From contig JAJDAN010000013.1 of NCBI GenBank assembly GCA_029261855.1, positions 1 to 64,000 of the forward strand: a stretch of 64,000 nucleotides of DNA, written 5' to 3'. The notes beneath the pieces are model-generated. The model searched no databases. It saw nothing but the letters and a program-made list of their open reading frames with translations, and was not told the DNA's origin. The DNA comes from Deltaproteobacteria bacterium (GTDB lineage: Bacteria > Myxococcota_A > UBA9160 > UBA4427). Position 1 is the first letter of the stretch; each line of letters begins with the position of its first letter. This document shows, piece by piece, positions 1 to 15,125 of this stretch. Both the position numbers and the translations under genes were made by a program.

Positions 1-417
1 CATCATGCTGTGCATGTCGGTGACCCGAAGATGGCCAGGGTTCCCGATGGCCCCGCGCTGCTCCGAGGTCTGGACGATGTAGGGAAGGAAACCGGTCGCC
101 TCACGGAGGGCTTCGCACAGCATCGAGTGGAGTTCCTGATCCTTAGGAACAACGAGAGCGACCTGCCTCCCGATGTCGGCTCGTATTCCCGCCTTCACGA
201 GAACAGGGCCGAGAGTTGCATCACCGGCGGCGATGTTGTCGGCAAGGTTGCGATCGAAGTTTGGAGCCGGAACCACATACTGGATTCGCACCTGCTCGAC
301 CGCGCACTCCAAGGCCTCCTCGACTTCGGTGACCTCCTCGGCTGTCAGCGGACGGTCGATGTAGTAGGTGCGCAGCGCAGCCACAGGCTCAGTGAATCTC
401 CTGCCACGCGCGCTCAT
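1..417 (-). CDS. Hypothetical protein, partial (runs off left edge)
   Basis: The reading frame is open on the minus strand from an ATG at 417 to the window edge (139 codons visible). An alternative GTG start is at 384, just after the stop of the upstream gene at 389. The protein begins MSARGRRFTEPVAALRTYY and has an acidic helical segment (EEVTEVEEALECAVEQV) followed by a mixed alpha/beta region. I do not recognise a family. It is the third gene of a tightly packed minus-strand set (889-1218, 389-889, 1-417) with overlapping ends, so the three are probably co-transcribed. The C-terminus is missing. Confidence 0.55.
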   Translation of the reverse strand, partial: MSARGRRFTEPVAALRTYYIDRPLTAEEVTEVEEALECAVEQVRIQYVVPAPNFDRNLADNIAAGDATLGPVLVKAGIRADIGRQVALVVPKDQELHSMLCEALREATGFLPYIVQTSEQRGAIGNPGHLRVTDMHSMM

Positions 418-889
418 CCAGCATCATGCGGTCCGTGAGGTCGGGCTCCGCTTCGAGGGGGACGAACTCCCACGAGCCTCCCGGGACGGCGTAGACGTGG
501 GCGTTGAGCCTGACAGACTCGCGGAACAGGAGCCCCATTGCCCCATTTGAAATGTCCGTGAAGTCTGCCGCGATCCACGTATGCTCCCTCTCGCGGATGA
601 GGATCGGGGTACGCTCCTCAACATCGAGAAAGTGTCTCTGCTCTCTTTCCACGATCTCCTTGCACAGCCCTACGTGTTCAGCGCAAGGTGGGCACTCGAT
701 TGCTGATGCCGGCGGGTCGGTAGTAGCTTCGAAGAGCGCAAGGCCGCAGGGTGCGACGAGCTTCCCGTCGTCTGCTGCATCCCATACGATGTGCCACGTT
801 TCATCGTCAGGATTGCGCAGGTACTCGGTGGGCTCGGCCTCGGAGGCTGGTTGTCGAGACAGAAGGCGGAGGAAGTCTTCGCGATCCAC
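389..889 (-). CDS. Hypothetical protein with possible zinc-binding cysteines
   Basis: A 166-residue protein starting at GTG 889. The start overlaps the TAG stop of the upstream gene (TAGTG), suggesting translational coupling. Residues 33-71 hold a possible metal site: H33, C48, C66 and C69 (spacing CGLALF...ECPPCAEH), resembling short zinc-ribbon modules of small actinobacterial and phage-like proteins. The C-terminal half (about 85-166) is acidic and may be a small alpha/beta domain. No catalytic motif or membrane segment is seen, and no function is proposed. It lies between two other unknown genes of the same strand in the island. Confidence 0.6.
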   Translation of the reverse strand: MDREDFLRLLSRQPASEAEPTEYLRNPDDETWHIVWDAADDGKLVAPCGLALFEATTDPPASAIECPPCAEHVGLCKEIVEREQRHFLDVEERTPILIREREHTWIAADFTDISNGAMGLLFRESVRLNAHVYAVPGGSWEFVPLEAEPDLTDRMMLDERAWQEIH

Positions 890-1218
890 TACGCATCACT
901 CCACTCGGACAGCAGTTCCCAGTTCTCGAAGTTGTTGGCCTGGGTGAGGTAGCCTGCCTCCCGGAAAGCGTGGAGAAGGAAGTCTGCGTCTCCCTCCCAA
1001 TCCATAGCTCCGGCTATGGACTTGGCAGAGAACCCAGAAAGGTCGCCATCGGGAGCGTACTCGGCAGTGAAGTGCAGGAGCGTCTCGACCAGACCAATCG
1101 CCGAGACTCTCGCAGTCCGGTTGTCCTGCGTTTCGCACGTCGTCAGCAGGTCGGCCAGCGTGACCAGCCGCTCGTCTTCGATGGCGTCATGGTTCATGTG
1201 GGCGTCCGCCTGGACCAT
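889..1218 (-). CDS. Hypothetical protein, possible winged-helix type
   Basis: About 109 residues from ATG 1218 (GGAG four bases upstream); the frame stays open to 1290, and an in-frame ATG at 1197 is also possible. The body is helical, with SAIGLVETLLHFTAEYAPDG followed by a segment ending in FLLHAFREAGYL. This is the kind of helix-turn-helix plus small-domain layout seen in phage replisome-organiser-like proteins, but the similarity is by eye only. It is the first gene of the three-gene minus-strand set at the left edge, and its stop overlaps the next start. Confidence 0.5.
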   Translation of the reverse strand: MVQADAHMNHDAIEDERLVTLADLLTTCETQDNRTARVSAIGLVETLLHFTAEYAPDGDLSGFSAKSIAGAMDWEGDADFLLHAFREAGYLTQANNFENWELLSEWSDA

Positions 1219-1331
1219 TATGCTCCAACCACCCAGAAGACGCCGGGCGACTCGGAGGCACGGAAAAAGGGGAAGATACCGCACAGCCACGGTACGGAAA
1301 CGAAGACGGCGTTCTGGGTGGGGATTTCGGG

Positions 1332-1880
1332 CTACAGAAGCCCCGCTCCAGAGCGATCCTCGAACAGGCCCGCGCGCCGGACGCTCGGACAGTTTCCACG
1401 GAGCGGTGCCGGGCTTGGTCCATCAGCCGGAACAAGGTGGCCCCGTTGGCGGCGGCCGAGGTGGCGAAGCCCGAGCGTCGGCTGTGCCCGCCGAAGTCGT
1501 CGGGATCGAGCCCGGCCAGGGCGGCGTAGTGCTTGACGACCGTCGCGATGGTTCTGGGAGCGATAGGGTCCGCGGTGACGTGACCGCCCCGGCGCAGCCT
1601 GCGGAACAGCGGCCCATCGGTGGATCGAGGGAGCCTCCAGCCCGCTCTTCAGAGCCGACACCGGGCATGCCTTCTTGTCCCCGACGACCGCGATCTCTTG
1701 GCCCTGGCGCTCCTGACCTCCCTTGCTGTGCGGGATCAGCACGCGGAATCCATTGGGAACTTCCGTCAGGTGCGAGGCCATCAGCCCCCGGCAGCTCCGA
1801 CCGCCGGCACGCACTGGTGAACGCGAACAGCAGGAGGGCCCGGTCCCGAACGCCACGGAGGTCACCGCGGTGCTGCCGTT
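1332..1880 (-). pseudogene. Decayed tyrosine recombinase (phage integrase family)
   Basis: Read on the minus strand, pieces of a tyrosine recombinase catalytic domain appear in order but in different frames. About 1725-1855 reads LRGVRDRALLLFAF then SACRRSEL (box I arginine). About 1640-1760 reads HLTEVPNGFRVLI and later GQEIAVVGDKKACPVSALK. About 1385-1625 reads DGPLFRRL..GHVTADPIAP and then GGHSRRSGFATSAA..TLFRLMDQARHRS (HxxR and following histidine regions). The tail RRAGLFEDRSGAGLL ends at TAG 1332-1334. At least three frameshifts and an in-frame TAA upstream of the first segment show the gene is dead. The N-terminal SAM-like domain is not recognisable. Confidence 0.85.
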
Positions 1881-2600
1881 ATCGCGAACACCGAAGATCC
1901 TGCGCAGCATCGCGTACTGGCCGCAGCAGAAGGCACCGGGCACCGTCGAGGTCGTGCTCGATATGGTGCAGCCGGAACACTCGCTCGACACGGCGGTCAG
2001 GGTTCTCGGCCGAGCGTTGCTAGTTGATACCGACGGCCGAACCCGGAGCCCTGGTGCTACAGCGCTGGCAGGGTGGCCGGGATGACGGTGGTCAAGGTGG
2101 AGCAGGTGGAGCGGGCGTTTCGAGCAGTGCGGCCTCGACGCGCTGATCTGCACGGTCCCGTTCGATCTAGCCGTCACGGCAGCCGGAACGCGCGCTCTAC
2201 AGGTGGTCAGAGGGAACGCCGTCGAGGTGCGAGCCAGAGGGCTCCGGGTGCGACGAGTAGGCTGGAGGCGCGGGGGACCGGTGCGTTCCTCCATCCTGCA
2301 TCCGCCCTGTCAACGCCCGGGCTGTAGAGTCAGCAAGGCTCCCCATGCTCTCGAAGGCAAATCCACACACTCCAAGTGGACACGGAGCTGTGTTCAGCAC
2401 TAATCCAACATGTACTCTCGCTTTCATGTCAACATTGCAGTCGAGCAGTCCCGCAGAACGTGCAGCCGCTGATCGCCTCAAGCCGAGCGACTTCTGAGCT
2501 GGCATCCCTACTTGAGGTGATGCTGCGAGCGGGGTGATTCCGATCGGAGCGATACAGGTACTCCGCCCGCACCAGCGGGAAACAGGGAGAAAACAGTCTC
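1881..2600. other. Gene-free stretch upstream of the thiaminase gene
   Basis: No convincing protein is encoded here on either strand; the short frames have arginine- and proline-rich translations typical of non-coding high-GC DNA. The stretch contains the first copy of a 25-bp imperfect repeat at 2182-2206. Immediately upstream of the thiaminase ATG (2601) there is a ribosome-binding site, GGGAG at about 2585-2589 with an 11-base spacer. I see no TPP riboswitch: the conserved CUGAGA and ACCUGAUCUGG elements are absent. The composition changes from GC-rich near the dead integrase to more AT-rich beyond about 2330. Confidence 0.6.
2182..2206 (+). repeat. 25-bp imperfect direct repeat, copy 1
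   Basis: This 25-base segment matches 4051-4075 at 23 of 25 positions and shares the exact core CGCTCTACAGGTGG. The two copies are in the same orientation and bracket the thiaminase gene (2601-4004), about 1.87 kb apart. A decayed integrase lies just to the left. Such a pair could be footprints of site-specific or other recombination that brought in the thiaminase segment, but no mobile-element ends are visible. Confidence 0.6.
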
Positions 2601-4004
2601 ATGGGCAAGTCTTGGAGACTCGGTGCGCTAGCTCTTCTGGGAATACTCTTGCTCGTGGGCTGTGGTACGCCAAGCGGAACCGGCGTGCGACCGGACGCCG
2701 AAGCACGTACTACTGCGACCGAGCCTGCTGCGGAGACCCTGGTGGTTGGGCTTTACCCCTGGGTCCCGAGACCAGAGCAGTTGCAGAATGCGATTTTGGA
2801 AGCCTGGAGCGAGCTACATCCGGGGGTGGCGCTGCGTTTCGACGCTGATTGGGATGGCGGCTACGCAGCAGACCCATCAGGAATGGATGTGTTCGTGTTC
2901 GACGCAATATTCCTCGATTACTTCCGAAGCCGGAATCTTCTCGCGGGCATGGACCCGAGCACTATTTCCGATCTTGACGACTACGTTCGATACGCGATCG
3001 ACGGCGCAGAGCATGAAGGAAAATACTACGGCCTGCCGATGTTCGGCTGCGCCAACATTCTCTTCTACCGGACGGGGGATGAGCCGGTCGCGAACGCGAA
3101 TACGCTCACTGCACTCACTCAGGCAGTCGGTCAGTGTAGCTACACTAGCCAGATACCACCTGATGAGCGTGGCCTCCTGATTGATCTGGCGGGTGGAACC
3201 ACCAATGCCTGTATGTACATTGATCTGGCGGAAAGTATCGACGGGCAGTGGCCTGTGCCTCTGCCAACCGAGCCGAGCGAACTCAACGCCACCGCAATTG
3301 TGGGCGGCAAGTCGCTCCTGAGCACAGCCAGCTTCTACAATGCAACGAAGGACCCGAGTGACGGACCCTATGCCCGAGCGGCGTGGTTCTCGGAGGGAAA
3401 CGGTCGCATTCTCATGGGGTTCACCGAGGCCATGTCCGCGATGACTGCGGACACGCGAGCGAATCTTGAGTTCAAGCCCTTCCCGCTGGGCGACGATGCT
3501 GCCGCGAGTTCACTCTTCTACTCCGATCTCATCGGCATCAGCCCAGAGACTCGCAATCCCGCGCTCGCCGCTGAGCTTGCGAACCTAATGGCCTCGACAG
3601 ATGTGCTGGTAGCTGGAATGAAAGGCACGGGTTCCGATTCTCCCCAATTCCTAATGCCAGTCCGAACTTCAGTCTTTCGATCCTTGGAGCGAGAGAATGC
3701 CCTCTATACCCGTATGTACGAGATGGTGATGGACGCCAATCCGATCTTGTTCAATCTGGGCACTGAATCCCGGGAGTACATTTCCAATATGAAGGGCGCG
3801 ATCAAGCAGCAGATTCGGGCAGACTACCCCTGCGGCTGTGACCAAGATGGCGGCACGATTGCTACGCAGTCACAGGCTGATGCGACTTGCCCCGCAGTTT
3901 GCGAGTCCTTCGGCGGCTGGAACGGACAGTGGACGCCCTATCCGCCGGGCGGAACCTCCGGCTGGAAGAGTGGTTGCGGCTGTAACGCATGCCCAGCTCC
4001 GTAG
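2601..4004 (+). CDS. Thiaminase I (thiamine pyridinylase), lipoprotein with C-terminal lectin-like tail
   Basis: A 467-residue protein. Residues 1-21 are a lipoprotein signal with lipobox LVGC (C21), so the enzyme should be exported and lipid-anchored. Residues 46-405 match bacterial thiaminase I (EC 2.5.1.2), an enzyme with a periplasmic-binding-protein fold that swaps the thiazole of thiamine for another nucleophile. Recognisable segments are YPWVPRPEQLQNAILEAW, DVFVFDAIFL, GLPMFGCANILFYR with the catalytic Cys (C150), AGGTTNACMY, the GFTEAM segment with the catalytic Glu (E276), and FYSDLIGISPETRNPALA. Residues 410-467 are an extra Cys-rich tail (C411, C413, C430, C434, C459, C461, C464) with QADATCPAVCESFGGWNGQW, resembling MVL-type mannan-binding lectin repeats. 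No other thiamine gene is nearby. Function is confident from recall of the Paenibacillus enzyme; the lectin call is tentative. Confidence 0.9.
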   Translation: MGKSWRLGALALLGILLLVGCGTPSGTGVRPDAEARTTATEPAAETLVVGLYPWVPRPEQLQNAILEAWSELHPGVALRFDADWDGGYAADPSGMDVFVFDAIFLDYFRSRNLLAGMDPSTISDLDDYVRYAIDGAEHEGKYYGLPMFGCANILFYRTGDEPVANANTLTALTQAVGQCSYTSQIPPDERGLLIDLAGGTTNACMYIDLAESIDGQWPVPLPTEPSELNATAIVGGKSLLSTASFYNATKDPSDGPYARAAWFSEGNGRILMGFTEAMSAMTADTRANLEFKPFPLGDDAAASSLFYSDLIGISPETRNPALAAELANLMASTDVLVAGMKGTGSDSPQFLMPVRTSVFRSLERENALYTRMYEMVMDANPILFNLGTESREYISNMKGAIKQQIRADYPCGCDQDGGTIATQSQADATCPAVCESFGGWNGQWTPYPPGGTSGWKSGCGCNACPAP

Positions 4005-4050
4005 GGCGGCAAGGCTCAGCCGAGCTTGCGATCACCGCAGCACCGGGGTA

Positions 4051-4075
4051 GCCGAAACGCCCGCTCTACAGGTGG
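4051..4075 (+). repeat. 25-bp imperfect direct repeat, copy 2
   Basis: Second copy of the repeat at 2182-2206 (23/25 identical, same orientation). It begins 46 bases after the thiaminase stop codon. This copy, unlike the first, also forms the left arm and loop of a hairpin (see 4051-4084). Confidence 0.6.
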
Positions 4076-4084
4076 CGGTTCGGC
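4051..4084 (+). other. Hairpin downstream of thiaminase gene
   Basis: GCCGAAACGCC (4051-4061) and GGCGGTTCGGC (4074-4084) pair at 10 of 11 positions around a 12-base loop. There is no T-run after it, so it is not a standard Rho-independent terminator. It could stabilise the 3' end of the thiaminase mRNA, act as a weak terminator, or be part of a recombination site, since its left arm and loop belong to the repeated 25-mer. The length and lack of canonical R boxes argue against an integron attC site. Confidence 0.5.
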
Positions 4085-4187
4085 TTCGGCGGAAGCACCA
4101 GGGCTAGGATCGAGCCCCGTTCCACCTGCGGGCATTGCTCCGGCTGCCGATCACGAGTGAGAAGATTGAACCCGGCCTAGTGGATCG

Positions 4188-5078
4188 TTACGGTGATGGG
4201 GTCGGGTGGAGGCGATCCCTTCTCCGTTCCATCGCGGCGATCTCGCGGTGCATCTCTGGAATCAGGTCACGGAACGCCTGCTCCGCAAGATTTAGATCTA
4301 CACGGATTGGCTCTCGATCATTGGGACGAGCGCGACCTAGCAAGTCCCAAATCAGTGCTTCAGCCAGAGCGGGCTCCTGAACATCTCGATAGCGATGGAC
4401 CTCCCAGCCATCCCGGTCATTGCCTTCGTAGAAGCGATCGAGTGTTTCAAGCGTTAGTTCAACCTTGATGAGCCCAGGCTTCTCGGGATGAATCATCAGG
4501 CAAAGGAAGCCGGACCCTGCCGCCTGTTCAATCTCTTCGGCATCCTTCTCGCCGACCGCACACTGCGGACAGCCTTCGCCCGCCGCCACATTCGCAGGTA
4601 CCGTTCGCCACGCATGGCCGTTGATGCACTGAAAGTCGGACCTTCCATACTTGCTTCGGACATGTCCAACGAGTGTGATGCCGCGTCCTGCAAGTCTCTT
4701 TCTCATCCAAGCCGTGTACACGTAGACGTGATCCGGGGTGGGCTGCGGTGGCCGCACGCCCGCTTCTCTCGCGGCGTTCAAACCCGCCTGTACCGTCTTC
4801 CACTCCATTCGCTCAACTTCGACCCCGCCTCGATACGGGATATCGGTCAGGCCCGTTGCTCCCCAGAAAACAGCTTCGGCATGCACTGGGTCAGGAACTT
4901 CGATGTATTCCTTTAGCTCCCACTTCTGACCGGTCTCTTTGACGATTTGGCCCGCAATCTTGGCGTAGTCGGTGTTGTGCTGGGCGATTCGTCGTTCGAG
5001 TTTCTGCGTGGTGCGTCCGACCTTCACAAGGGCCGGGTCGGAGGGGTGAACCAGTACGTAGATGTACCCAGGCTTCAT
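4188..5078 (-). CDS. Double T5orf172 (GIY-YIG-like) protein with central zinc ribbon
   Basis: A 296-residue protein. Residues 3-75 form a T5orf172 domain, a GIY-YIG-related fold: GYIYVLVHPSDPALVKVGRTT, then a basic R/H segment and a VPDPVHAEAVFW helix. Residues about 148-175 look like a treble-clef or zinc-ribbon module (C151, H155, C170, C173). Residues 190-250 repeat the first pattern in degenerate form (FLCLMIHPEKPGLIKVELT, then ALAEALIWDLL), so the protein is an internal duplication. It is the last gene of a minus-strand set with ardC, a ribbon-helix-helix protein and a small unknown protein. DNA binding or nicking is plausible from the family; whether it cuts is unknown. Confidence 0.75.
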   Translation of the reverse strand: MKPGYIYVLVHPSDPALVKVGRTTQKLERRIAQHNTDYAKIAGQIVKETGQKWELKEYIEVPDPVHAEAVFWGATGLTDIPYRGGVEVERMEWKTVQAGLNAAREAGVRPPQPTPDHVYVYTAWMRKRLAGRGITLVGHVRSKYGRSDFQCINGHAWRTVPANVAAGEGCPQCAVGEKDAEEIEQAAGSGFLCLMIHPEKPGLIKVELTLETLDRFYEGNDRDGWEVHRYRDVQEPALAEALIWDLLGRARPNDREPIRVDLNLAEQAFRDLIPEMHREIAAMERRRDRLHPTPSP

Positions 5079-5146
5079 CGTGTCCCCCGGAGATCCCGTC
5101 GATCAAGCGCACATGACTCCCCGTGCGCCGCAACGCGGTTGCCCGC

Positions 5147-5560
5147 CTACGCTGGCGTGTGGCTGTGACAGATTGGGTCACAGCGGTGGCCTCCGCCAGC
5201 ACGCCGACTACGGAGCCTATCGAGTTCCACCTGCGGCTCTGGTTTCGGTCGCCGGATCAGGGGTTGTTCGGAGAAGGCGAAAGGCTCGTGTATGAACGCC
5301 GCGATCTCGACGAGTCGCTCCGGCCCGAGGTGTCGTTGGATGTTCGCGGACTCGATTTGCTGACGGGGGAATAGCGGCTCCCACCCTCCGAGAATCCGAT
5401 GGCGGATCGCAGCAACGGCATAGCGGACGAGCCCACGAAGGTGATCGTTCAGGTTGATGTCGTGCGCAACCAGAAAATCCTTGGGATTGGCCGCTTCCTC
5501 TTCGATGGCTTGCCAGCGCTGTAGCTCGGCCTCCATCTCGCGGGTCCAGAGTTGTCTCAT
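5147..5560 (-). CDS. Hypothetical protein in ardC operon
   Basis: About 137 residues from ATG 5560, chosen because AGGAGG sits eight bases upstream; the open frame extends to 5671 without such a site. The protein starts MRQLWTREMEAELQRWQAIEEEAA and is mostly helical. The tail is proline/arginine-rich with a final CDPICHSH that could be fortuitous. No family is recognised. It lies 40 bases after the ribbon-helix-helix gene and 68 bases before the T5orf172 gene on the same strand, so it is probably co-transcribed with both. Confidence 0.6.
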   Translation of the reverse strand: MRQLWTREMEAELQRWQAIEEEAANPKDFLVAHDINLNDHLRGLVRYAVAAIRHRILGGWEPLFPRQQIESANIQRHLGPERLVEIAAFIHEPFAFSEQPLIRRPKPEPQVELDRLRSRRAGGGHRCDPICHSHTPA

Positions 5561-5600
5561 GTCAGTAGCCTCCTGTATGACCTGTGCGCCGTGCGTCGAC

Positions 5601-5819
5601 CTATCGTGCAGCTTTGCCCTGCTTGCGGCGGCGCGGCTTGTCCGGGGTACTCGCGTCCTTCGCAGCGCCAACCTGCGCCACGACCGGTTGGTCCCGAATC
5701 CAGAATCTCAGAAGCACCTCGAACATTGCGCTGCGTGAGAGCCCCATGGCATCGCGTTCGCGATCGAGGATCTCTAGACCCTGCTCGGTCAGGCTGACGT
5801 TGATTCGTTCCCTGGACAT
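5601..5819 (-). CDS. Ribbon-helix-helix (CopG/Arc-like) DNA-binding protein
   Basis: A 72-residue protein. Residues 4-12 (RINVSLTEQ) are a typical beta strand of the ribbon-helix-helix fold, followed by helix GLEILDRERDAMG and helix LSRSAMFEVLLRFWIRDQ. The C-terminal 25 residues are basic (DKPRRRKQGKAAR) and probably contact DNA non-specifically. It starts 15 bases after the ardC stop in the same direction, so a role as autoregulator of the ardC operon is the simplest reading. The inverted repeats at 6783-6816 upstream of ardC are candidate operators. A plasmid-type antitoxin role is possible, but no toxin partner is obvious. Confidence 0.75.
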   Translation of the reverse strand: MSRERINVSLTEQGLEILDRERDAMGLSRSAMFEVLLRFWIRDQPVVAQVGAAKDASTPDKPRRRKQGKAAR

Positions 5820-5834
5820 GCTTCCCCCTCAGGA

Positions 5835-6731
5835 CTACGCGGCCCGAGCCTCCAGAGTCGCCTCAAACTCGCGCCCGGTGATGTGGTCAACTGCACGCTG
5901 CGCTTGGGCTCCGGCGAGCACAACGAGCTTCGGGTCGTTCTTGAGCGCCTTCAGCCAGCTCGCCACGTAGGCGGCGGAATTGTCCACGAGGGCCTCGCTG
6001 TCGATCCCGGCTTCGGCGAGCAGGAACGCTGCACCCATCTCGGCGACCAATTCTTCCTGGGAATACTCGTGGCTCCCGTACCGGGTGGGGCTGGTGACGC
6101 CGGGGCGAGCCAGCCGGGCCTCGTGCCCGGTCGAATGTCCCATCTCGTGAAACAGCGTCGCGTAGAATTGCTCCTCGGAATCGAAGGTCTCCCGTTTCGG
6201 CATGTGGATCGAGTCAGTTGCGGGTCGGTAGTATGCTGACGCCCGACCGTCCTCGGTGATTGAAGGCGCATCGGCATAGCCCGCGACGATCGCCTCGGCG
6301 GTCTCGATCGGGCTGAAGGGCGCGGGCTCCTCGGTCTCGGCCTCCAGCCTCTTGTGGCTGATCCCGTCGCACTGCTCGACGTTGAAGACCGAGTAGTAGC
6401 GGACGAGCGGGATCTGCTTCGTCGTGATCTCGCCGGTCGCCGGGTTCTCGGTGTCGCGATTGAGGAACTTCCAGAAGATGCAGGGCGTCGAGCGCTCACC
6501 CTTGCGAACGGTGCCGCCGAGCTGCTTCGCCTGCTTGAAGGTCACCCAGTAGGGCGACGAGAAGTCCTGGCTCCCCAGCAGCCAGACGTTCACACCTCGG
6601 TACTCCTTGCCGGACACGAGGTTCTTGGGGCAGCCACCCGCCGACCACGGCTTCCGCCACGGCACCGTGCCCGCCTCCAGCTTCTCAAGGATTCGTTCGG
6701 TCACGATGTCGTAAACGCTCTTCTTTGCCAT
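5835..6731 (-). CDS. ardC: ArdC-like anti-restriction protein
   Basis: About 298 residues from ATG 6731 (GGAG eight bases upstream; the frame is open to 6845). The N-terminal half (about 1-135) is the ssDNA-binding ArdC_N domain: SVYDIVTERILEKLEAGTVPWRKPW, then GVNVWLL and SPYWVTFKQAKQLGGTVRKG. The C-terminal half is a zinc metallopeptidase-like domain with HEMGH at 195-199 and a downstream helix EELVAEMGAAFLLAEAGI. ArdC proteins come from conjugative plasmids and protect incoming ssDNA from restriction. The gene heads a probable four-gene minus-strand operon and faces a 254-base divergent control region. Its presence beside a type I restriction operon suggests that parts of the island were acquired separately. 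Confidence 0.9.
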   Translation of the reverse strand: MAKKSVYDIVTERILEKLEAGTVPWRKPWSAGGCPKNLVSGKEYRGVNVWLLGSQDFSSPYWVTFKQAKQLGGTVRKGERSTPCIFWKFLNRDTENPATGEITTKQIPLVRYYSVFNVEQCDGISHKRLEAETEEPAPFSPIETAEAIVAGYADAPSITEDGRASAYYRPATDSIHMPKRETFDSEEQFYATLFHEMGHSTGHEARLARPGVTSPTRYGSHEYSQEELVAEMGAAFLLAEAGIDSEALVDNSAAYVASWLKALKNDPKLVVLAGAQAQRAVDHITGREFEATLEARAA

Positions 6732-6782
6732 TCCATCAGCTCCGAACCCCTCCGAAGTGATGAGATACTTATCGGCCAAATT

Positions 6783-6816
6783 GTGTGTAACTTGAGCACA
6801 CGATTGCCTCGGCAAT
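6783..6816. promoter_or_regulatory. Two inverted repeats in the ardC control region
   Basis: The divergent region 6732-6985 contains GTGTG (6783-6787) paired with CACAC (6797-6801), and immediately after it a perfect ATTGCC-TC-GGCAAT (6803-6816). Both are of operator size and lie 50-85 bases upstream of the ardC start. The ribbon-helix-helix protein encoded in the same operon is the obvious candidate ligand. No clear sigma-70 hexamers with good spacing could be assigned. Confidence 0.45.
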
Positions 6817-6985
6817 TGATGCGCAAGAGCAGCGCAAGTCTGCACACGCGCGCATCAGTCAGAGCAGGCGTCGTTAGTGATTCCGGCAGGTTTGCGCTGA
6901 ACGGACCGCGAGGCTCTGGAGGTGTGGCAGTCTTGGATCTCGTTGTGGGTTGAGATGGTTTGGTCTGCGCGGGGAACGAGTCGCC

Positions 6986-8260
6986 ATGAGCGAACACGAC
7001 AACCACTTTGGCCGCATGCTCGCCGAGACGGTGGATTTCAGTTTCCTTGCTGAGGAGTTGGGCCGTGATGCGAACGAGTCGCTGAGCTTGGGGCTGGAAG
7101 CAGGCGCGGTGATGCCGAGTGCAGGTCAGCCCGTGGATCATTTGCGCCACGCCATCGCCGAAGCCATCGGTGACATTACTTCACACGCCCGTTGGGACCT
7201 CTTTCAGCGCTTTCTGGAACACGGACCAACGGATGTCGAAGAAACGGATTCCAATCCCGAGCGGCTCACCCAGGCCGAAACCGCCAATGTGATCTCCTTC
7301 ATCTGGGGCCACACTGTCAACAGTTTTCAAGGCGCGATTACCGAGTTGCTCGCGGTCAAGCCCTGCGTGCGAATTCTCAAGAGGCTGCAACAGGAAGGGC
7401 GTCTAGATCAAGAAACGCGCCTTTACGTGGGCGATGTAGTCATGGCGTCCCGCTTGCGCGGTTTCCGTTTTGCCAAGGGCGCGGATGTTCACATGTTGGC
7501 CGTTCGTGACGAGTCGGCAGGTTGCCCGTCCGTCACCGTCCTGGGCGTGGGCGAAGTGAAGTCATACTTCTGCCGAGAACGAGTTCTCCAGGGGCAGTTG
7601 GCGAAGCATGTCGCCAGGGCGCGGCGTGGCTTACGCATCTCTGGGAAAGACTATTCAAAGGATGCAATCAGGGCGCGATACGAATCTCAAGGCGAGGTGA
7701 TACGGATCGTGGTTCTGCCGAGCGATTGGCCACTGCCTCGCGGGTTTGGTTGGCGGCAGGAGGGCGAGACGCGCGTACTTGAAGTCGTGCCGGGATCGCC
7801 GCCCACAGCCACGGACAAAATCACAGCAGTGAGTGAAACAGAATGGCGCGTGGAGCTGAGATGGTCCCGGGAGGCCCTCGCTGCTGCGGCCTACGAGATG
7901 ACATTCTGGTTCATGGCTCAGATCGGCGAGGTCATTTACCGAGGCGGCGTCCCTTCAGAATGGTCCGAGATGACCCCAGCGGAAGCGGGTTACAACGCCG
8001 CAAAGGAGAAGCTCTATTACGCCATCCGCCCCTACGCCGTCAAAGCGGAAGAGAGCAAACGGCCGGGCGCTCCCAAGCTGACGCGCAAGGAAGTGTTGGA
8101 AATGCAGAGGGCTATCGCGCTGTACAACAGTTACGGCTTCGGATACGCGCTGGGAATGAACTTCAAGAACCGTGCTCGCAAGCGCGAGATGCTGTGGCCG
8201 CAAGACTTGGACGAGATTCTGGAATCCGGTGAGACAACGACTGGATGCAGGATTATGTAG
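6986..8260 (+). CDS. PD-(D/E)XK nuclease-like protein of unknown system
   Basis: About 424 residues from ATG 6986 (GGGGAA nine bases upstream; a TTG at 6950 is also in frame). The N-terminal 140 residues are helical and unrecognised. Residues 160-210 look like a PD-(D/E)XK nuclease core: GADVHMLAV (D167), a strand PSVTVLGVGEVKSY giving E190-x-K192, and a following helix with Q202/Q204 (LQGQLAKHVARARRG). The C-terminal part is unrecognised and ends in a basic segment. The gene is divergent from ardC and convergent with the HEPN-like gene at 8404. Function in DNA cleavage or phage defence is inference from the motif and context. Confidence 0.6.
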   Translation: MSEHDNHFGRMLAETVDFSFLAEELGRDANESLSLGLEAGAVMPSAGQPVDHLRHAIAEAIGDITSHARWDLFQRFLEHGPTDVEETDSNPERLTQAETANVISFIWGHTVNSFQGAITELLAVKPCVRILKRLQQEGRLDQETRLYVGDVVMASRLRGFRFAKGADVHMLAVRDESAGCPSVTVLGVGEVKSYFCRERVLQGQLAKHVARARRGLRISGKDYSKDAIRARYESQGEVIRIVVLPSDWPLPRGFGWRQEGETRVLEVVPGSPPTATDKITAVSETEWRVELRWSREALAAAAYEMTFWFMAQIGEVIYRGGVPSEWSEMTPAEAGYNAAKEKLYYAIRPYAVKAEESKRPGAPKLTRKEVLEMQRAIALYNSYGFGYALGMNFKNRARKREMLWPQDLDEILESGETTTGCRIM

Positions 8261-8403
8261 GGTCGGCGTGCGGCGAAGGCAAAATTGCCGCGCGGCAGGA
8301 CGCCCGGGCCGGGCTGTTCGGTAGACGCACGAGGAGTCAATGGCTAGCAGCGTGATTCTGGGCTACAGCGGCCCTGCATAGTGTCGATGAGCTGTTGCGG
8401 CGA

Positions 8404-9645
8404 TCAGCGCGACTTGTCTCGCTCCGCCGCCGTCGCCGCCGCCTCCAGCTCGGCGAGAATGATGCCGAGCGTCTTCTCACGGTCCTGCTTCACCGGGTTC
8501 GCAGGAACCCCGGCCTCCAGCGAGACTTCGAGCCTGTCGGACAGGTGGAAAGATTGCCACCGCTCGCCGTCGAAGACCGCCAGCTCCCACCACCTCCAGA
8601 ACCGTTCGTCGTCTTCCATGTCGAAGGGCTCGCCGAGAATGCGAACCAGCTCCCTTCGCTCGGCCAGGAAGTCGTGGATCGCCTGGGCGGTGCGACCTTC
8701 GGGCGTGTCTGCTCCCCTCCACGCCTTGGCCCACGACATCGGTCCCGCCGGTCTGAATCGCCGTGGTTGCACCAGCCTCGGTGTGAGACGGTTCGCCTCC
8801 CGCAGGTCGAAGGTGGAGGGCGCCACCTCATCAATCAGCGAGTACCCACGCGCCGCCGCCTCGGCGATGGCTCGGAAGTCCTCTGACTTGACGAGTGTGC
8901 CTATCGCCACTGGGGTCTCGGCAAGGCGGGCGGCCTGCGCTGCCGGTGCGACGCTGTAGTCACTCCCGCCGATCTCCTCCGTCAACACCTCGATCGACTC
9001 GTTGAGCCTCGCCCTGACGCTCGGTAGCCGGGTCCCGACCGGTCCGAACACCTCGACGTGTTTCTCGATCAGCGCCACCACGGCGTGATGAGCTGCTCTC
9101 TCCCAGTTGTGATTTCGATAGCGCCGGTAGCGATCGAAGAGCACCTCGTGGTGCGGCATCAGGGAGACCGGCGGCTCTTCCTTCACTAGCTCCCGGAAGT
9201 GTTCGTGAACGAGCCGGGACACAAGACGCCGTGCTCCGGCCAGCATCCGCTCGTAGGACTCGGGATCGGGAAGCTGGGCATGGTGCTTCGCATCTCCCCG
9301 GTGCTTCTGGAGGCTTCGAAACACCCCGATGAAGGGCATCTCGAAGCCGAGCTTCCGGTACTCTGCGAGAGCCTGATCCAAGCCGATCGTCTGTTGCCCG
9401 GACTTGTAGACATCCACGTCGTGCGCCAGAAGGATTTCGTAAAGCATGAATTCGATGGCGTCGTGCAGAAGCGACACCACATGGCGGGGGCTGGCGGCTT
9501 TGAAAGCCGGGCTGTACCGGGGAACTGCTTCTCGCCCCGGCTCCTGCGAAGCAATCTGATAGGCGAAGGCGAAGTCCCGAAGCGCCGCTTGGAGGAACGG
9601 ATACTCCGAACGTGCCGGGCGCTTCTTGTCGTTGGGGAGCTTCAT
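8404..9645 (-). CDS. HEPN-like domain protein
   Basis: About 413 residues if translation starts at ATG 9645 (GAGGG eight bases upstream); the frame is open to 9807, so a longer N-terminus is possible. Residues 52-150 are helical and look like a HEPN domain: HVVSLLHDAIEFMLYEILL, a long helix, then HRGDAKHHA, which contains R116-x4-H121, the Rx4-6H signature of HEPN RNases. The remaining 260 residues are charged, with a cluster of aromatics (ERFWRWWELAVFDGERW) near the C-terminus, and are unrecognised. HEPN proteins are common toxins and defence effectors. No adjacent nucleotidyltransferase antitoxin is present, although the divergent gene at 9876 has a cyclase-like look. Confidence 0.6.
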   Translation of the reverse strand: MKLPNDKKRPARSEYPFLQAALRDFAFAYQIASQEPGREAVPRYSPAFKAASPRHVVSLLHDAIEFMLYEILLAHDVDVYKSGQQTIGLDQALAEYRKLGFEMPFIGVFRSLQKHRGDAKHHAQLPDPESYERMLAGARRLVSRLVHEHFRELVKEEPPVSLMPHHEVLFDRYRRYRNHNWERAAHHAVVALIEKHVEVFGPVGTRLPSVRARLNESIEVLTEEIGGSDYSVAPAAQAARLAETPVAIGTLVKSEDFRAIAEAAARGYSLIDEVAPSTFDLREANRLTPRLVQPRRFRPAGPMSWAKAWRGADTPEGRTAQAIHDFLAERRELVRILGEPFDMEDDERFWRWWELAVFDGERWQSFHLSDRLEVSLEAGVPANPVKQDREKTLGIILAELEAAATAAERDKSR

Positions 9646-9875
9646 TCCCGAGACCCTCGTACCGCCAGCGAGAAAGGGTACCTGAGCATCTCCCTCTGCT
9701 TCCCCCATAGTCCGGGGCGTGCGTGCGTTGCTAGACGCCATTGAGACGAGGGGGGATTCCGCCGCAGTACGAAGTGATCGAGGATCTGGGAAGGCGTCGC
9801 ACAGCACATCAAGAGTCGGATACGGCCGGCCGATGATCCCCGGAAGAGCGGTTCGCGACTTTTCGGAGAGAATCA

Positions 9876-10670
9876 GTGGTAGAGACGCCCCAGCCCGGGT
9901 GCTTCAAGCTGGTCGAGACTGCCGCCGCTTGGATCGATCTGCTGGGATACGGCAGCCAACTCCAAATGGCTGGGCATGACCTCTCGTCATCAGAGGCGCA
10001 GCACGCGATTCGCCGAGCGCTTGAGTTTCAGCAGGTCTTCAATCGTCGGGAAACATTCATGCGGGTAGCCGTCTTCAACGATGGCGCCTTGTTAGTGTCT
10101 GATCTTGAAGACGCTGGCGACTACCGCGGAAGTCGAATCTTCGTGTCAGATCCGTGGAAGTTCGTGCGACACGCTTTGGTCCTGCACGCCAGGGTGAATG
10201 AGGTTGAAAGCGGGAGTGAGCATCCTGGCGCCCGGATGATCGTCTGCCGTGGTCAGCGTGTACTTCGTGGAAGGCAGGTGCCGCATCTCCAGAAGAAGAA
10301 TCTAGACTACGCAATGCGAAACATCTCAAAACGCGCGACTGGCCCGTCGGGAGAGCAGACGAAGCTGGATAGGATGACCGATGAGGCTCATGAACCTACG
10401 ATCCTCGCTCCGTCGCACTTACAGTTCAATAGCGCCTTTGCCCGTGCCTACACAGCAGACAACTTGGGCCAGCGTGCAGGGCTTGGCGGCCCCTTTGCCT
10501 TCGTTGACACCCGCCTCCTCAATCCAATTCAGGAGCGATGCCCGTGGTCATTCCACTCGGTGGGCATCGTAGACAGTGAAGATGAGCAGCCGAGGAATCG
10601 GGTGCTTGGTGAGGCTATCGAGTTCAAGAAGGCAGTACAGATAAAGCACACCAAGTTGGTGGGTGCTTAG
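9876..10670 (+). CDS. Hypothetical protein with cyclase-fold-like features
   Basis: A 264-residue protein from GTG 9876. Residues 16-28 (AAAWIDLLGYGSQ) and 67-76 (VFNDGALLVS) resemble the two metal-site strands of degenerate class III nucleotidyl cyclase-fold proteins, often FxDxxGF followed by an (S/N)DG strand. The segment ending GARMIVCRGQRVLRG would then be the following helix-strand. The remainder is not recognised. It is divergent from the HEPN-like gene with a shared 230-base intergenic region (9646-9875) and convergent with the integrase at 10680, only nine bases apart. If the fold is right it could be a signalling or sensing partner of the HEPN protein, but that is speculative. Confidence 0.5.
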   Translation: MVETPQPGCFKLVETAAAWIDLLGYGSQLQMAGHDLSSSEAQHAIRRALEFQQVFNRRETFMRVAVFNDGALLVSDLEDAGDYRGSRIFVSDPWKFVRHALVLHARVNEVESGSEHPGARMIVCRGQRVLRGRQVPHLQKKNLDYAMRNISKRATGPSGEQTKLDRMTDEAHEPTILAPSHLQFNSAFARAYTADNLGQRAGLGGPFAFVDTRLLNPIQERCPWSFHSVGIVDSEDEQPRNRVLGEAIEFKKAVQIKHTKLVGA

Positions 10671-10679
10671 GACGGGATT

Positions 10680-11702
10680 CTAAGTCGAGAACACGTAGGG
10701 CACGGTGATCGTCTCGGCAGCCGCGTGCTTCGCGCGCTCACCTCGACGGTCGTACCTAGCGGTGATTGCAGGCCCGGAAGCGTGGCCGACGAGCTTCGAT
10801 ACGACCGAGAGATCCACACCTCGGTCGAGCAGGGTCGAGATGTAGGTTCGCCGCATGTCGTGCGGTGTGAAAGCGGGTATACCCGCTTGCTCGGCACGTC
10901 GCGCGCAAACTCGGTAGATGGCTTCCGGGGAAAGCGCACGACCATGTTGGATCTTGCCGCCCTTGAGCACGGGGCAGAACAAGGGGCCGGACTCCTGGCC
11001 GCGGTGCGAGAGCCACGCGCGGAGCGCATCGACCGCGCCGTTCTTGAGAGGCACCTCGCGAACCTGACTGCCCTTTCCATCGACGGTCAGCACCCAGGTG
11101 TTCTGATCGAGGCTGCGGGGCAGGACGAGGCCGCCGAGTTCCTGTCGCCGCAGACCGCCACCGGCGATGCCGAGTGCGAGAATCGCGGCGTCCCTGGCTG
11201 CGGCCGGGGAGTCATCGCGCTGGAGGACATGGAAGAGGGCCGCGACCTCGTTGGGTTCGAGGGCTCGCCCGCGCAGCACCGAGGCCCCGCGAACGGGTTC
11301 GAGGTCGATCGCCCGGTGGTAGTCCTCCGCCGACATCTGGCCGAGACGCCACGCCTCGCGGAGCACGCCACGCAAGGCACACAGGGTCTTGTTGATCGAG
11401 GCCGGGCTGAGCGGCCGGCCGGTGCGGGGGGACACCGTGTCGCGCAGGGCAGCGCGGATCGCCTGGGTGTGCTCGTAGCGGAGCGCCGCCCAGGGGAGAC
11501 GCTCGGGCCCGAGTTGGCCGCCGGTGGCGATCCGGGCGACCTGATCGAGCGCCTGAGCCATGGCGCGCCGGCTTCCGGCCGCCAGTCCGGCGAGATAGAT
11601 GGGGGCGGGGTCCTGGCCGGGGCGCTCCAGGGGGAGGGCGACCAGCTCGGCGGGCACCCCATTTCCCAGGGGGATATCGGTCCTGCGAATTTGGATTCTC
11701 AC
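10680..11702 (-). CDS. Tyrosine recombinase (integrase), apparently intact
   Basis: A 340-residue protein with an N-terminal SAM-like core-binding domain (about 35-140) and a catalytic domain (145-330). All catalytic residues are present: R185 in GGGLRRQEL, K210 in VDGKGSQVREVPL, H281 and R284 in TPHDMRRTY, H307 in LVGHASG and the nucleophile Y317 in TARYDRR. It is therefore probably active, in contrast to the dead copy at 1332-1880. It sits in the middle of the island rather than next to the tRNA-Gly scar at 22 kb, so either it belongs to an inner element or the island was extended after integration. No excisionase-like gene is seen beside it. Confidence 0.9.
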   Translation of the reverse strand: MRIQIRRTDIPLGNGVPAELVALPLERPGQDPAPIYLAGLAAGSRRAMAQALDQVARIATGGQLGPERLPWAALRYEHTQAIRAALRDTVSPRTGRPLSPASINKTLCALRGVLREAWRLGQMSAEDYHRAIDLEPVRGASVLRGRALEPNEVAALFHVLQRDDSPAAARDAAILALGIAGGGLRRQELGGLVLPRSLDQNTWVLTVDGKGSQVREVPLKNGAVDALRAWLSHRGQESGPLFCPVLKGGKIQHGRALSPEAIYRVCARRAEQAGIPAFTPHDMRRTYISTLLDRGVDLSVVSKLVGHASGPAITARYDRRGERAKHAAAETITVPYVFST

Positions 11703-11832
11703 ACCAAAAGTAATCGGAAGCGTCAGGTCAAAACTTTAGCGAAACTTAGACGAAAGTCGGAGCCTCGTGGCGCTCTCGCCGTACGCAGGTGAGTATCAAT
11801 CCGGCACGGGCCACGCGATCGAAGGTAATTCC

Positions 11833-13848
11833 ATGAAGTCGATTTCAGTTCAAGTTCAGGCCGATCACCTCCAGAAGCTTGCCCGTGCGCGCAAGCCCGT
11901 TCTGGCGATCGCGGAGCTGGTCTGGAATGCCTTGGATGCTGACGCTCAGGAGGTTCGCGTCGAGTTCGATACGAACGATCTCGGCGGCATTGACGAGATC
12001 AGGGTGGTGGACGACGGCCACGGCATCGCATACGACGAAGTGGAGGCTGTGTTCGCGAAACTCGGCGGCTCGTGGAAGCGCACGGCCGCGCACTCCCGAT
12101 CCGAACACCGCTTACTTCACGGCAAAGACGGCAAGGGGAGGTTTCGAGCGTTCGCCCTGGGTGAAAACGTCCGCTGGGACACGCAATCGCACAGTGAATC
12201 TGGAACAGTTGAATTCTCGATTAGCACGTCCACTCATAAACTCGGCACGTTCGAAGTTGGAGATCCACGAGCAAGCGATCGCGACGACACCGGCACAACT
12301 GTGGTCATCTCGAATCTACCGAAACCATTCGGGTCATTAGTTGGCGCGTCAGCCATTCTTGAATTCAGCACCATATTTGCGCTTTACCTCCGCCAGTACC
12401 CGACAGTCCGCCTGCGGTACAACGGTCAGAGAGTCTCAACGAGCGACCTTGAGAGTCACATCGCCGAGTACCCGCTCAATCAGATCGAAGTGGCCGCCGG
12501 GACAACCGTCGATGCCCATTTGACTGTTGTCGAGTGGAACTGCGCGATGGAGAGAGCCCTCTTCCTCTGCGACGAGGATGGATTTGCCCTATTCGAGATT
12601 CCGGCAGGCGTCCAAGCGCCGGGCTTCAACTTCACTGCATATCTCAAGGCAAACTACTTCCGCGAGCTTGAAGATGAAAACATCTTGGAAGTATCAGACA
12701 TGCACCCCGGCGTCCAGAAAGTCGTCGGAACCGCCCGGGAGTGCATACGGACCCATTTTCGCCGTCGGACCGCCGAGCTTGCCACGGATATAGTTGCGTC
12801 GTGGAAGCGCGATGACGTTTATCCATACCAAGGTGAGCCGACGAGCGTAATTGAACGTGCGGAACGCGAGGTCTTCGAGGTCGTCGCACTCAATGTCAAT
12901 TCATACCTGCCGGACTTTCGTGACCTCGACACCAAGAGCAAAAAGTTCTCATTTCGACTATTGAAGGAGAGTTTGGAAGAGAGTCCTGAGGCAGTCCAAC
13001 GAATCATCAAGGACGTGCTGGACTTGCCTAAGTCCAAGCAAGAAGAACTCGCGACTCTGCTTCAGAAGACCACGCTCTCCGCGATAATCAGTGCATCGAA
13101 AGTCGTTGCAGATCGCCTCGACTTCCTCAGAGGTCTTGAGCTTCTTGTCTTCGACCCCGATTCGAAGGACCAACTCTTGGAGCGCAGCCAACTGCATCGA
13201 GTCGTGGTTGATGAGACGTGGATATTCGGAGAGGAGTACGCCCTCGCCGTTGATGACGAGTCACTTACGGAAGTTTTGCGGAAGCACATCGAGGCAACCG
13301 GCCAAGACATCGAGATACTCGATCCGGTGACTCGTGAGGAGGGGAAAAGAGGAATCGTAGACCTCATGTTTTCCCGAACGATTCCGCAGCCACGCGCGAC
13401 TGAGCATGAACACCTCGTCGTCGAGCTGAAGCGCCCGAAAGTCTCGATCGGACACGAAGCCCTAACGCAGATAAAGAGCTACGCCTTCGCAGTAGCGGAG
13501 GACGAACGCTTCAGGGACACCGAAACGCGGTGGACCTTCTGGGCAATCTCGAACGAGATGAGCGATTTTGCTCGCAAGGAAGCGAACCAAACAGGGAGAC
13601 CGTTCGGGCTCGTGTTCGACGACGACAAGCACCGGATACGTATCTGGGTCAAGACCTGGGCGCAGGTGCTTGATGAAGGTCGAGCTAGATTGCAGTTCTT
13701 TCGGGAGAAGTTGGAGTATTCAGCGGACCGGCAATCTGGGCTTGATTACCTCAGGCGAGTCCACGCAGCGCTGCTCCCCGATGCTCTGTCGAACTCTGAC
13801 GATGGCAGCGATCAGGACGACGAAACCGATCGGCCCGAAGCAGAGTAG
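11833..13848 (+). CDS. GHKL ATPase fused to PD-(D/E)XK-like nuclease domain
   Basis: About 671 residues from ATG 11833 (an in-frame extension reaches 11767). The N-terminus is an Hsp90/gyrase B/histidine-kinase-type ATPase: N-box with E28 and N32 (AIAELVWNALDADA), G1 box VVDDGHGI (60-65), a glycine-rich lid GKDGKGRFRAFALG (97-110) and a later TTVVISNL strand. The middle (about 230-480) is helical and charged. Residues 505-560 carry a nuclease-like core: VDLMF (D510), LVVELKRP (E531-x-K533) and a helix with ALTQIKSYAF. The acidic tail (DDGSDQDDETD) ends the protein. ATPase-nuclease fusions of this type are frequent in defence islands. It is convergent with the RES-domain gene, ten bases away. 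Confidence 0.8.
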   Translation: MKSISVQVQADHLQKLARARKPVLAIAELVWNALDADAQEVRVEFDTNDLGGIDEIRVVDDGHGIAYDEVEAVFAKLGGSWKRTAAHSRSEHRLLHGKDGKGRFRAFALGENVRWDTQSHSESGTVEFSISTSTHKLGTFEVGDPRASDRDDTGTTVVISNLPKPFGSLVGASAILEFSTIFALYLRQYPTVRLRYNGQRVSTSDLESHIAEYPLNQIEVAAGTTVDAHLTVVEWNCAMERALFLCDEDGFALFEIPAGVQAPGFNFTAYLKANYFRELEDENILEVSDMHPGVQKVVGTARECIRTHFRRRTAELATDIVASWKRDDVYPYQGEPTSVIERAEREVFEVVALNVNSYLPDFRDLDTKSKKFSFRLLKESLEESPEAVQRIIKDVLDLPKSKQEELATLLQKTTLSAIISASKVVADRLDFLRGLELLVFDPDSKDQLLERSQLHRVVVDETWIFGEEYALAVDDESLTEVLRKHIEATGQDIEILDPVTREEGKRGIVDLMFSRTIPQPRATEHEHLVVELKRPKVSIGHEALTQIKSYAFAVAEDERFRDTETRWTFWAISNEMSDFARKEANQTGRPFGLVFDDDKHRIRIWVKTWAQVLDEGRARLQFFREKLEYSADRQSGLDYLRRVHAALLPDALSNSDDGSDQDDETDRPEAE

Positions 13849-13857
13849 CTCGCGACG

Positions 13858-15078
13858 CTAATCGGCATCGCGTGTTTCGAGAGATCCGCATTCCAATACA
13901 AGCCAATCCGTCACAAACATCGCGCGATCAGTTCGCCCGTCATCGTCAACGCACTGCTCGTGCTCAAAGAACAGAACAGAGCACGCCCCTCCGTCGCGAC
14001 GCGAGCTTGGAAACACGATCCCGTCGAGGGATTGCTGACCTCGATCCCGGTAGACCCGCCGAAAATACTCAGTGACTACCTGAGTGGGCACATACTCGAT
14101 GTGCTCCATTCCGTTCTTCGCGATTGGCTTGGCCAGATCCTCGACAAATCCCATCAAGAATTTGCGCACCACGTACTCCGATCGCTTCTCTAGATCAAAG
14201 AAGCTTGGGGGCGTCGGGATGTGCCTTAGGTCGAGGACTCGGAGGGGTCGAGAAGCTGTGAACACACCTGATGTCACCTGCTTGTCTAGAGATGGCCTAT
14301 CGGGGTCAGTTACTTCGTCTAGAGCCGTGTCTCGCTCCAATGCGCCATAGAACATCCCAATTCCAGCCGGGCTCATTCTATTTGAGAAACGAGCTTCGGG
14401 AGGCGTCCCTAACGCGGCCCCGCAATCGACTTTCTCGCGCGCCCCGTGAATCCGCGCGCGGAACCATTTCTCGTGAGAATCTCGAACCAGTTCAGAATTC
14501 GAGATCATCCGAGAGAGATGATCCAAGAAGTCGGCCGGGGCAATTTCCTCGTCATCCATAGCCTCCCGATCCGCTCGCACGGAGAAGAAGTACCGCGAAC
14601 GATGCTTCACCTGCGATACGAAACCCTTCCATCCTGAAGCCAACACTTCGCGATCAGACATCCTGTAAGGGCTGATATCGCAGACAATCCACGTTTGATC
14701 GAAGATTGCGTCGGCTACCCATTCGTGGAACTCATCCGAGAAAGTTCCCCCGAATAGCCCGTGTACCGCGTCGTGAGTATCCGTCGTAGGAACGAGATAC
14801 CCACCTTCCCTGGAGTTGTAGCTAGCCACATGAACAGGGTCCGTGTAGACGGAATAGAACGCAGCGCCGATTGCTTCCATCACGGCCTCGACTGGAGCCG
14901 CAATGGGCTTCGCGCCGCTGCGCTGGTGACAGAAATCGCATTCTTCGGCCGAAGCCTCTGTCTCGACGATGGCCCTTAGGAACTCGTCACCAACGCAATC
15001 ACCACATACGAACTCCCCGTCACCGGACGACCAGCCCCGCTCTTCGTCCTCCATCATCTGCGCTTTCGCTAGGCCCAA
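13858..15078 (-). CDS. RES-domain protein with N-terminal zinc ribbon (probable NAD-targeting toxin)
   Basis: A 406-residue protein. The start is taken as TTG 15078 because GAGG lies five bases before it; ATG codons at 15057 and 15054 are alternatives. Residues 25-50 hold two CxxC pairs (C25, C28, C47, C50). Residues 60-185 form a helical region like the HEPN-type domain often found before RES domains. Residues about 205-370 are the RES domain: FRARIHGA, then ARFSNRMSPAGIGMFYGALERDTALDEV, containing the conserved Arg, Glu and Ser region. RES proteins such as MbcT and Res degrade NAD+. No Xre-type antitoxin gene is adjacent, so it may work alone in an abortive-infection role or with the convergent GHKL gene. 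Confidence 0.75.
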   Translation of the reverse strand: MGLAKAQMMEDEERGWSSGDGEFVCGDCVGDEFLRAIVETEASAEECDFCHQRSGAKPIAAPVEAVMEAIGAAFYSVYTDPVHVASYNSREGGYLVPTTDTHDAVHGLFGGTFSDEFHEWVADAIFDQTWIVCDISPYRMSDREVLASGWKGFVSQVKHRSRYFFSVRADREAMDDEEIAPADFLDHLSRMISNSELVRDSHEKWFRARIHGAREKVDCGAALGTPPEARFSNRMSPAGIGMFYGALERDTALDEVTDPDRPSLDKQVTSGVFTASRPLRVLDLRHIPTPPSFFDLEKRSEYVVRKFLMGFVEDLAKPIAKNGMEHIEYVPTQVVTEYFRRVYRDRGQQSLDGIVFPSSRRDGGACSVLFFEHEQCVDDDGRTDRAMFVTDWLVLECGSLETRDAD

Positions 15079-15125
15079 TTGAACCTCATACCTACCAAGG
15101 CAAGCTACTCATTCCAGAGGCGTGC

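What the first reader, a model, noticed from the sequence alone, without database searches (positions are those of the whole stretch)
2601..4004. Lipoprotein thiaminase I with a fused lectin-like cysteine-rich tail
Bacterial thiaminase I proteins are usually secreted and about 400 residues long. This one has a lipobox and a 60-residue extra tail with seven cysteines and the QADATCPAVC and GGWNGQW segments that recall MVL-type mannan-binding repeats. A surface-anchored thiamine-destroying enzyme able to bind glycans could act against neighbouring cells or predators, or salvage thiamine precursors. The gene lies in an island, not in a thiamine-salvage locus.
Basis: partly seen in the sequence, partly recalled or inferred. 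Interest (0 to 1): 0.75.

Follow-up and report, generated by a model that had tools for sequence, protein, structure and literature searches.

The report
Thiaminase I with lectin-fold tail
A mobile DNA island in this bacterium carries a membrane-anchored enzyme that should destroy vitamin B1, joined to a small domain with the fold of a sugar-binding lectin; the same rare fusion occurs in unrelated bacteria, which suggests a vitamin-destroying enzyme that is tethered or aimed rather than simply released.

Summary
ORF 2601-4004 (+, 467 aa) is a thiaminase I: TIGR04541 339.8 bits against a cut-off of 175; about 35% identical to Paenibacillus thiaminase I; model TM 0.93-0.94 to solved thiaminases; Cys150 and Glu276 kept. 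It has a lipobox (LVGC). The last ~60 residues are an MVL-type domain: Pfam MVL 29.6 bits (cut-off 25), 38-40 bits in two relatives, and the tail's own model best matches MVL (1zhq, Z 7.2, next 3.2).

The main addition is that the fusion is not unique. Five further thiaminases (Ca. Binatia, SZUA-336, two Alphaproteobacteria including Aquibium, and G635 from Aquibium's order) carry the same Cys-rich tail and form one clade (99/99) apart from untailed thiaminases. It is very rare and scattered.

The gene lies in a tRNA-Gly integrated island (exact 50-bp att copy at 21999-22048), with no thiamine locus or TPP riboswitch.

Lipoprotein thiaminases are already known from myxobacteria, where OMV-borne CcThi1 starves Phytophthora (PMC10499793). 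The MVL fusion was not found in the literature searched. Glycan binding is unproven: all six tails lack the GPxW tryptophan of MVL domains. Best reading: a tethered thiamine-depleting enzyme with a lectin-fold adhesion module, a new variant of a known kind.

The parts
2601..4004 (+). Whole gene: lipoprotein thiaminase I with C-terminal MVL-type domain, 467 aa
2601..2663 (+). Signal peptide residues 1-20 and lipobox cysteine C21 (LVGC, Gly at +2, no Asp retention signal)
   Evidence: Sequence inspection; lipoboxes also in L033 (LSAGC) and L034 (CVAC); plain Sec signals in L035, L036, L049
2733..3812 (+). Thiaminase I catalytic domain (periplasmic-binding-protein fold), residues about 45-404
   Evidence: TIGR04541 and PF22141; PDB 2thi/4kys by sequence and by fold, TMt 0.93-0.94; pLDDT mostly 80-98
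3048..3050 (+). Cys150, predicted catalytic nucleophile
   Evidence: Invariant; taken to correspond to C148 of CcThi1, mutated in PMC10499793 (family knowledge, not aligned here)
3426..3428 (+). Glu276, predicted catalytic base
   Evidence: Invariant; taken to correspond to E269 of CcThi1 (family knowledge, not aligned here)
3825..4001 (+). Cys-rich tail, residues 409-467, MVL-type beta-alpha-beta-beta domain with seven cysteines
   Evidence: PF12151 at 3867-3983; conserved in five relatives; model matches 1zhq
21999..22048 (+). Right attachment site of the island: exact 50-bp copy of the 3' end of tRNA-Gly(GCC)
1..21998 (.). Right-hand part of the tRNA-Gly genomic island that carries the gene (GC about 0.60 against 0.69 beyond)
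   Evidence: ArdC, tyrosine recombinase, type I restriction-modification, RES/HEPN

Best explanation
The gene makes an exported lipoprotein. Its catalytic domain is a thiaminase I that cleaves thiamine by swapping the thiazole for another nucleophile (Cys150 nucleophile, Glu276 base). The C-terminal unit is a disulphide-rich MVL-fold domain that works as an adhesion module, holding the enzyme to a glycan-bearing surface such as extracellular polysaccharide or a neighbour's envelope. Anchored in the outer membrane or shed on vesicles, the enzyme removes thiamine next to the cell, starving auxotrophic neighbours. Shown here: the domain identities, catalytic residues, lipobox, conservation of the fusion, and island location. 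Inferred: enzyme activity, disulphides, outer-membrane or vesicle location, glycan binding, and the antagonistic role.
For: Thiaminase I family, fold and catalytic residues. MVL homology by three routes: Pfam; profile-profile comparison with Cys-bearing bacterial MVL domains, E 1.6e-9, these in turn matching 1zhq at 6.9e-26; fold of the tail alone, 1zhq Z 7.2 with the next unrelated at 3.2. Fusion kept in six proteins, four of them 46-49% identical to the window protein, one clade at 99/99, with conserved cysteines and GGWxGxW. No shared neighbours and no thiamine genes seen at the homologous loci, no TPP riboswitch, ThiC present in the genome: arguments against a salvage pathway. Precedent for a lipoprotein thiaminase carried on OMVs as a weapon: PMC10499793.
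Against: Glycan binding was not tested. The tails lack the GPxW tryptophan that is invariant in MVL and in the bacterial MVL domains compared, and only one unit is present. Three of the six family members have ordinary signal peptides, so surface anchoring is not general. ThiC presence does not exclude use of thiaminase for salvage or nutrition. The MVL score of the window protein itself is borderline (24.5 whole, 29.6 tail).
Confidence: 0.55

Rival explanations
1. The tail is a disulphide-stapled MVL-derived cap that no longer binds glycans and only stabilises the enzyme outside the cell (protease or redox resistance, dimerisation). The enzyme still depletes thiamine.
For: Loss of the GPxW tryptophan and three extra cysteines compared with ordinary MVL domains, conserved among the tailed thiaminases; single unit; MVL itself is a homodimer with an extensive interface (PMC3407925).
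Against: The GGWxGxW motif, which aligns with the TGQW region of MVL, is kept in all six; untailed thiaminases are secreted and stable without such a cap (family knowledge).
Confidence: 0.27
2. Salvage or nutrition: the lipoprotein cleaves thiamine or thiamine analogues at the cell surface to supply pyrimidine or thiazole precursors to the cell, the tail being incidental.
For: Salvage has been proposed for thiaminase I of Burkholderia thailandensis (cited in PMC10499793).
Against: No salvage or transport genes seen near the gene in the window or at the homologous loci; no TPP riboswitch; ThiC present, so the pyrimidine can be made; island cargo.
Confidence: 0.15
3. The tail only resembles MVL by chance composition (Cys, Gly, Trp) and is an unrelated small Cys-rich fold.
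For: The window protein's own full-length Pfam score is just below the cut-off, and the direct profile match to 1zhq is weak, E 1.3.
Against: Two relatives score 38-40 bits; five of six tails match MVL and nothing else in Pfam; hhalign E 1.6e-9; the tail fold's best match is MVL, far above the next.
Confidence: 0.03

Closest known systems
Thiaminase I / thiamine pyridinylase BcmE (TIGR04541; PDB 2THI, 4KYS)
   Same: Catalytic domain, fold, Cys and Glu catalytic residues, about 35% identity to Paenibacillus
   Different: The known members compared end at about 400 aa without a tail and are soluble secreted enzymes; here a lipobox and an MVL-type domain are added
Myxobacterial lipoprotein thiaminase CcThi1/MxThi1 (PMC10499793)
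   Same: Lipoprotein thiaminase I of a Gram-negative bacterium; same presumed catalytic pair; plausible outer-membrane or vesicle location
   Different: CcThi1 is only about 18% identical to 2THI by the paper, and no lectin is mentioned in its text. The untailed lipoproteins found here in two 13-Mb genomes of the same phylum (L007, L008) are distant: L007 falls apart from the window protein in the tree and shares 26% with it. Whether they are CcThi1 orthologues was not tested
MVL, mannan-binding lectin of Microcystis viridis (PF12151; PDB 1ZHQ/1ZHS)
   Same: Tail has the same predicted beta-alpha-beta-beta fold and the GQW-type motif
   Different: MVL has two tandem units and no cysteines in the aligned units; the tail is one unit with seven cysteines, lacks the GPxW tryptophan, and is fused to an enzyme
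Cys-bearing bacterial MVL domains in other secreted proteins of the same phylum (L010, L012-L015)
   Same: CPxxC...W(N/T)GQW...SVCxC pattern
   Different: Different partner domains; they keep AGPxW, and lack the extra CxC before and the extra C after

Membership tests
Thiaminase I (TIGR04541) | Score above the curated cut-off of 175 bits | tested here: met
   339.8 bits
Thiaminase I (TIGR04541) | Catalytic Cys and Glu | tested here: met
   C150 and E276 invariant over 12 sequences
Thiaminase I (TIGR04541) | Thiaminase fold | tested here: met
   3thi E 3.9e-37 TMt 0.93; 4kys TMt 0.94
Thiaminase I (TIGR04541) | Cleaves thiamine with a nucleophile | not testable with these tools
   Needs an enzyme assay
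Outer-membrane lipoprotein | Signal peptide with lipobox, no Asp at +2 | tested here: met
   Read from the sequence, LVGC-G; no signal-peptide predictor was run
MVL (PF12151) | Score above the Pfam cut-off of 25 bits | tested here: met
   29.6 bits for the tail, 29.8 in the genome search; 24.5 for the whole protein; relatives 40.1 and 37.6
MVL (PF12151) | MVL fold | tested here: met
   Model of the tail: 1zhq TMq 0.64, rmsd 1.7; Z 7.2 over 52 residues, next 3.2; model pLDDT 77.5
MVL (PF12151) | Tryptophan of the AGPxW segment (invariant in the MVL domains compared; whether it defines the family or contacts sugar was not checked) | tested here: not met
   Absent in all six tails; present in the domains and in both units of 1zhq
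MVL (PF12151) | Binding of the oligomannoside core | not testable with these tools
   Needs a glycan array or ITC
Integrated genomic island at tRNA-Gly | Direct repeat of tRNA 3' end at both borders, integrase next to the intact tRNA, composition shift | tested here: met
   50-bp exact repeat, integrase and GC shift; the link between contigs C60 and C13 is inferred

The most novel reading that the evidence does not exclude
A horizontally spreading class of lectin-aimed thiaminases: the MVL-type tail directs a vitamin-B1-destroying enzyme, on the cell surface or on vesicles, to glycan-coated neighbours (algae, fungi, oomycetes, protists or other bacteria), making thiamine depletion a local weapon.
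Probability: 0.3. Interest if true: 0.75.

Novelty: new variant of a known kind. Interest (0 to 1): 0.52.

Why it matters
The biological role of bacterial thiaminase I has long been called a mystery (PMC10499793). A conserved fusion to a lectin-fold domain, seen in distant bacterial groups and carried on a mobile island here, points to action at a surface rather than diffuse secretion. It gives a direct test: does the tail bind a glycan, and does removing it abolish local thiamine depletion or antagonism? One member is in an assembly of Aquibium sp. A9E412, whose record is not marked as a MAG, so a cultured host may exist.

Tried and rejected
A genome-contig scan with the single protein found nothing; the alignment-based scan worked. 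No relative in viral contigs. The only plasmid matches are R. fascians bcmE, without a tail. TPP riboswitch: none in the window or at homologous loci. Conserved neighbourhood: none among the tailed homologues checked. Searching orders or phyla of the relatives found only one further tailed member, G635. The MVL sugar-contact residues could not be checked because the primary structure papers are not held. Literature searches for thiaminase with a lectin or mannan-binding domain gave nothing relevant. The chance-composition reading of the tail was rejected. A search for the name SZUA-336 with Myxococcota, to name the host phylum, found no paper.

Full report
OBSERVATION. The window holds an intact 467-aa ORF at 2601-4004 (+), present once in the genome. 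Residues 39-394 match the NCBIfam equivalog thiamine pyridinylase with 339.8 bits, cut-off 175. Pfam gives Thiaminase-1_dom 147.7 bits. The closest solved proteins are thiaminase I of Paenibacillus (E about 1e-69) and of Clostridium (E 5e-57). The two predicted catalytic residues, Cys150 and Glu276, are invariant over twelve homologues. The predicted structure has mean pLDDT 82.6 and matches 3thi and 4kys with target TM-scores of 0.93 and 0.94. The N-terminus reads as a lipoprotein signal, ILLLVGC-G; no predictor was run.

THE TAIL. Pfam MVL covers residues 423-461 with 24.5 bits in the full protein, just below the cut-off of 25, and 29.6 bits in the tail alone. Taken alone this would be borderline, so it was tested in other ways. 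In the Aquibium and alphaproteobacterial relatives the same tail scores 37.6 and 40.1 bits, and five of six tails match MVL and no other Pfam family. A profile of the six tails aligns with ordinary Cys-bearing bacterial MVL domains at E 1.6e-9, and a profile of those domains finds the MVL crystal structure 1zhq at 6.9e-26. The tail folded alone (five homologous sequences, mean pLDDT 77.5) is beta-alpha-beta-beta. Foldseek's best PDB match is 1zhq, E 0.25, probability 0.99, query TM 0.64, rmsd 1.7, and VIA-align gives Z 7.2 over 52 residues against 3.2 for the next entry. Z below 8 can arise from common arrangements, but here it agrees with the sequence evidence and stands well clear of the other rows.

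THE FUSION IS CONSERVED. A scan of one genome per species found four relatives whose match runs to the end of the tail: a Candidatus Binatia MAG (L033), Proteobacteria MAG SZUA-336 (L034, evidently the same contig as G088 in this genome's class), an Alphaproteobacteria MAG (L035) and Aquibium sp. A9E412 (L036). A fifth, more divergent, came from a genome in Aquibium's order (G635, L049). The thiaminases of Paenibacillus, Lacrimispora, another Clostridia MAG, Rhodococcus fascians and a Nitrosopumilaceae MAG end without it. Seven cysteines are invariant in five tails, and six of them remain in L049. A tree built with the tails removed puts the six tailed proteins on one side of a branch with support 99/99, so one origin of the fusion followed by spread across distant groups is the simplest reading. 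L049 has a long branch, so its exact place inside the clade is unsure. The family is rare: 2 of 379 genomes of the phylum exceed the cut-off, both tailed; 2 of 297 in the order of Aquibium, 1 of 247 in the Binatia genome's phylum, 1 of 43 in the order of L035, each count including the starting genome.

SETTING. Window 1 to about 22 kb has GC about 0.60, against 0.69 beyond. At 21999-22048 lies an exact 50-bp copy of the 3' end of tRNA-Gly(GCC). The intact tRNA lies on contig C60, is followed directly by a tyrosine integrase, and the low-GC stretch runs on to that contig's end. The gene is therefore cargo of a tRNA-integrated island of at least about 41 kb, if the two contigs belong to one element, which is inferred. 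Other cargo: ArdC, a tyrosine recombinase, type I restriction-modification, RES/HEPN and a T5orf172 protein. No thiamine gene was seen beside the thiaminase in the window or at the homologous loci, and no TPP riboswitch. The genome has ThiC, so it probably makes the thiamine pyrimidine itself.

HOW IT LIKELY WORKS. Established for the family: thiaminase I replaces the thiazole of thiamine by another nucleophile. Published for myxobacteria: the lipoprotein thiaminase CcThi1 sits in membranes, leaves on outer-membrane vesicles, and inhibits thiamine-auxotrophic Phytophthora; 129 of 138 myxobacterial homologues have lipoprotein signals (PMC10499793). By analogy, the window protein would deplete thiamine close to the cell or on vesicles. 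The MVL-type tail would hold it at glycan-bearing surfaces. That last step is the weakest: all six tails lack the tryptophan of the AGPxW segment that is invariant in the MVL domains compared, although GGWxGxW is kept; there is one unit, not two; and binding was not tested. A stabilising cap is the main rival. Salvage is less likely but not excluded.

NOVELTY. The enzyme, the lipoprotein form and the lectin fold are each known. Their conserved combination was not found in the papers searched (open-licence papers only), so it is a new variant of a known kind. The host phylum is not named by the tools; two 13-Mb genomes in it suggest Myxococcota, which is inference.

Noticed in passing
window 21999-22048 and G000:C60:80713-80762: A 50-bp exact direct repeat of the 3' end of tRNA-Gly(GCC) marks both borders of a genomic island; the intact tRNA and a tyrosine integrase are on contig C60.
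   Followed up: yes
L057 16703-19729 (-) (G000:C60, same island): A 1009-aa ORF with a caspase-like (Peptidase_C14) N-terminus joined to a DEAD-box helicase resembling HamB-type defence helicases; possibly a defence gene.
   Followed up: partly
window 1290-2300, minus strand: Frames that read like a frameshifted remnant of a tyrosine recombinase lie just upstream of the thiaminase gene; no Pfam match for the longest ORF, identity judged by eye.
   Followed up: partly
window 11767-13848 (+): 693-aa HATPase (GHKL-type ATPase) protein with no PADLOC match, next to a RES/HEPN protein and a type I restriction-modification system.
   Followed up: partly
L010, L012, L013, L014, L015: Proteins of the same phylum carry Cys-bearing MVL domains next to other, repeat-like extracellular regions (partner domains judged by eye); MVL modules appear to be widely reused.
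   Followed up: partly
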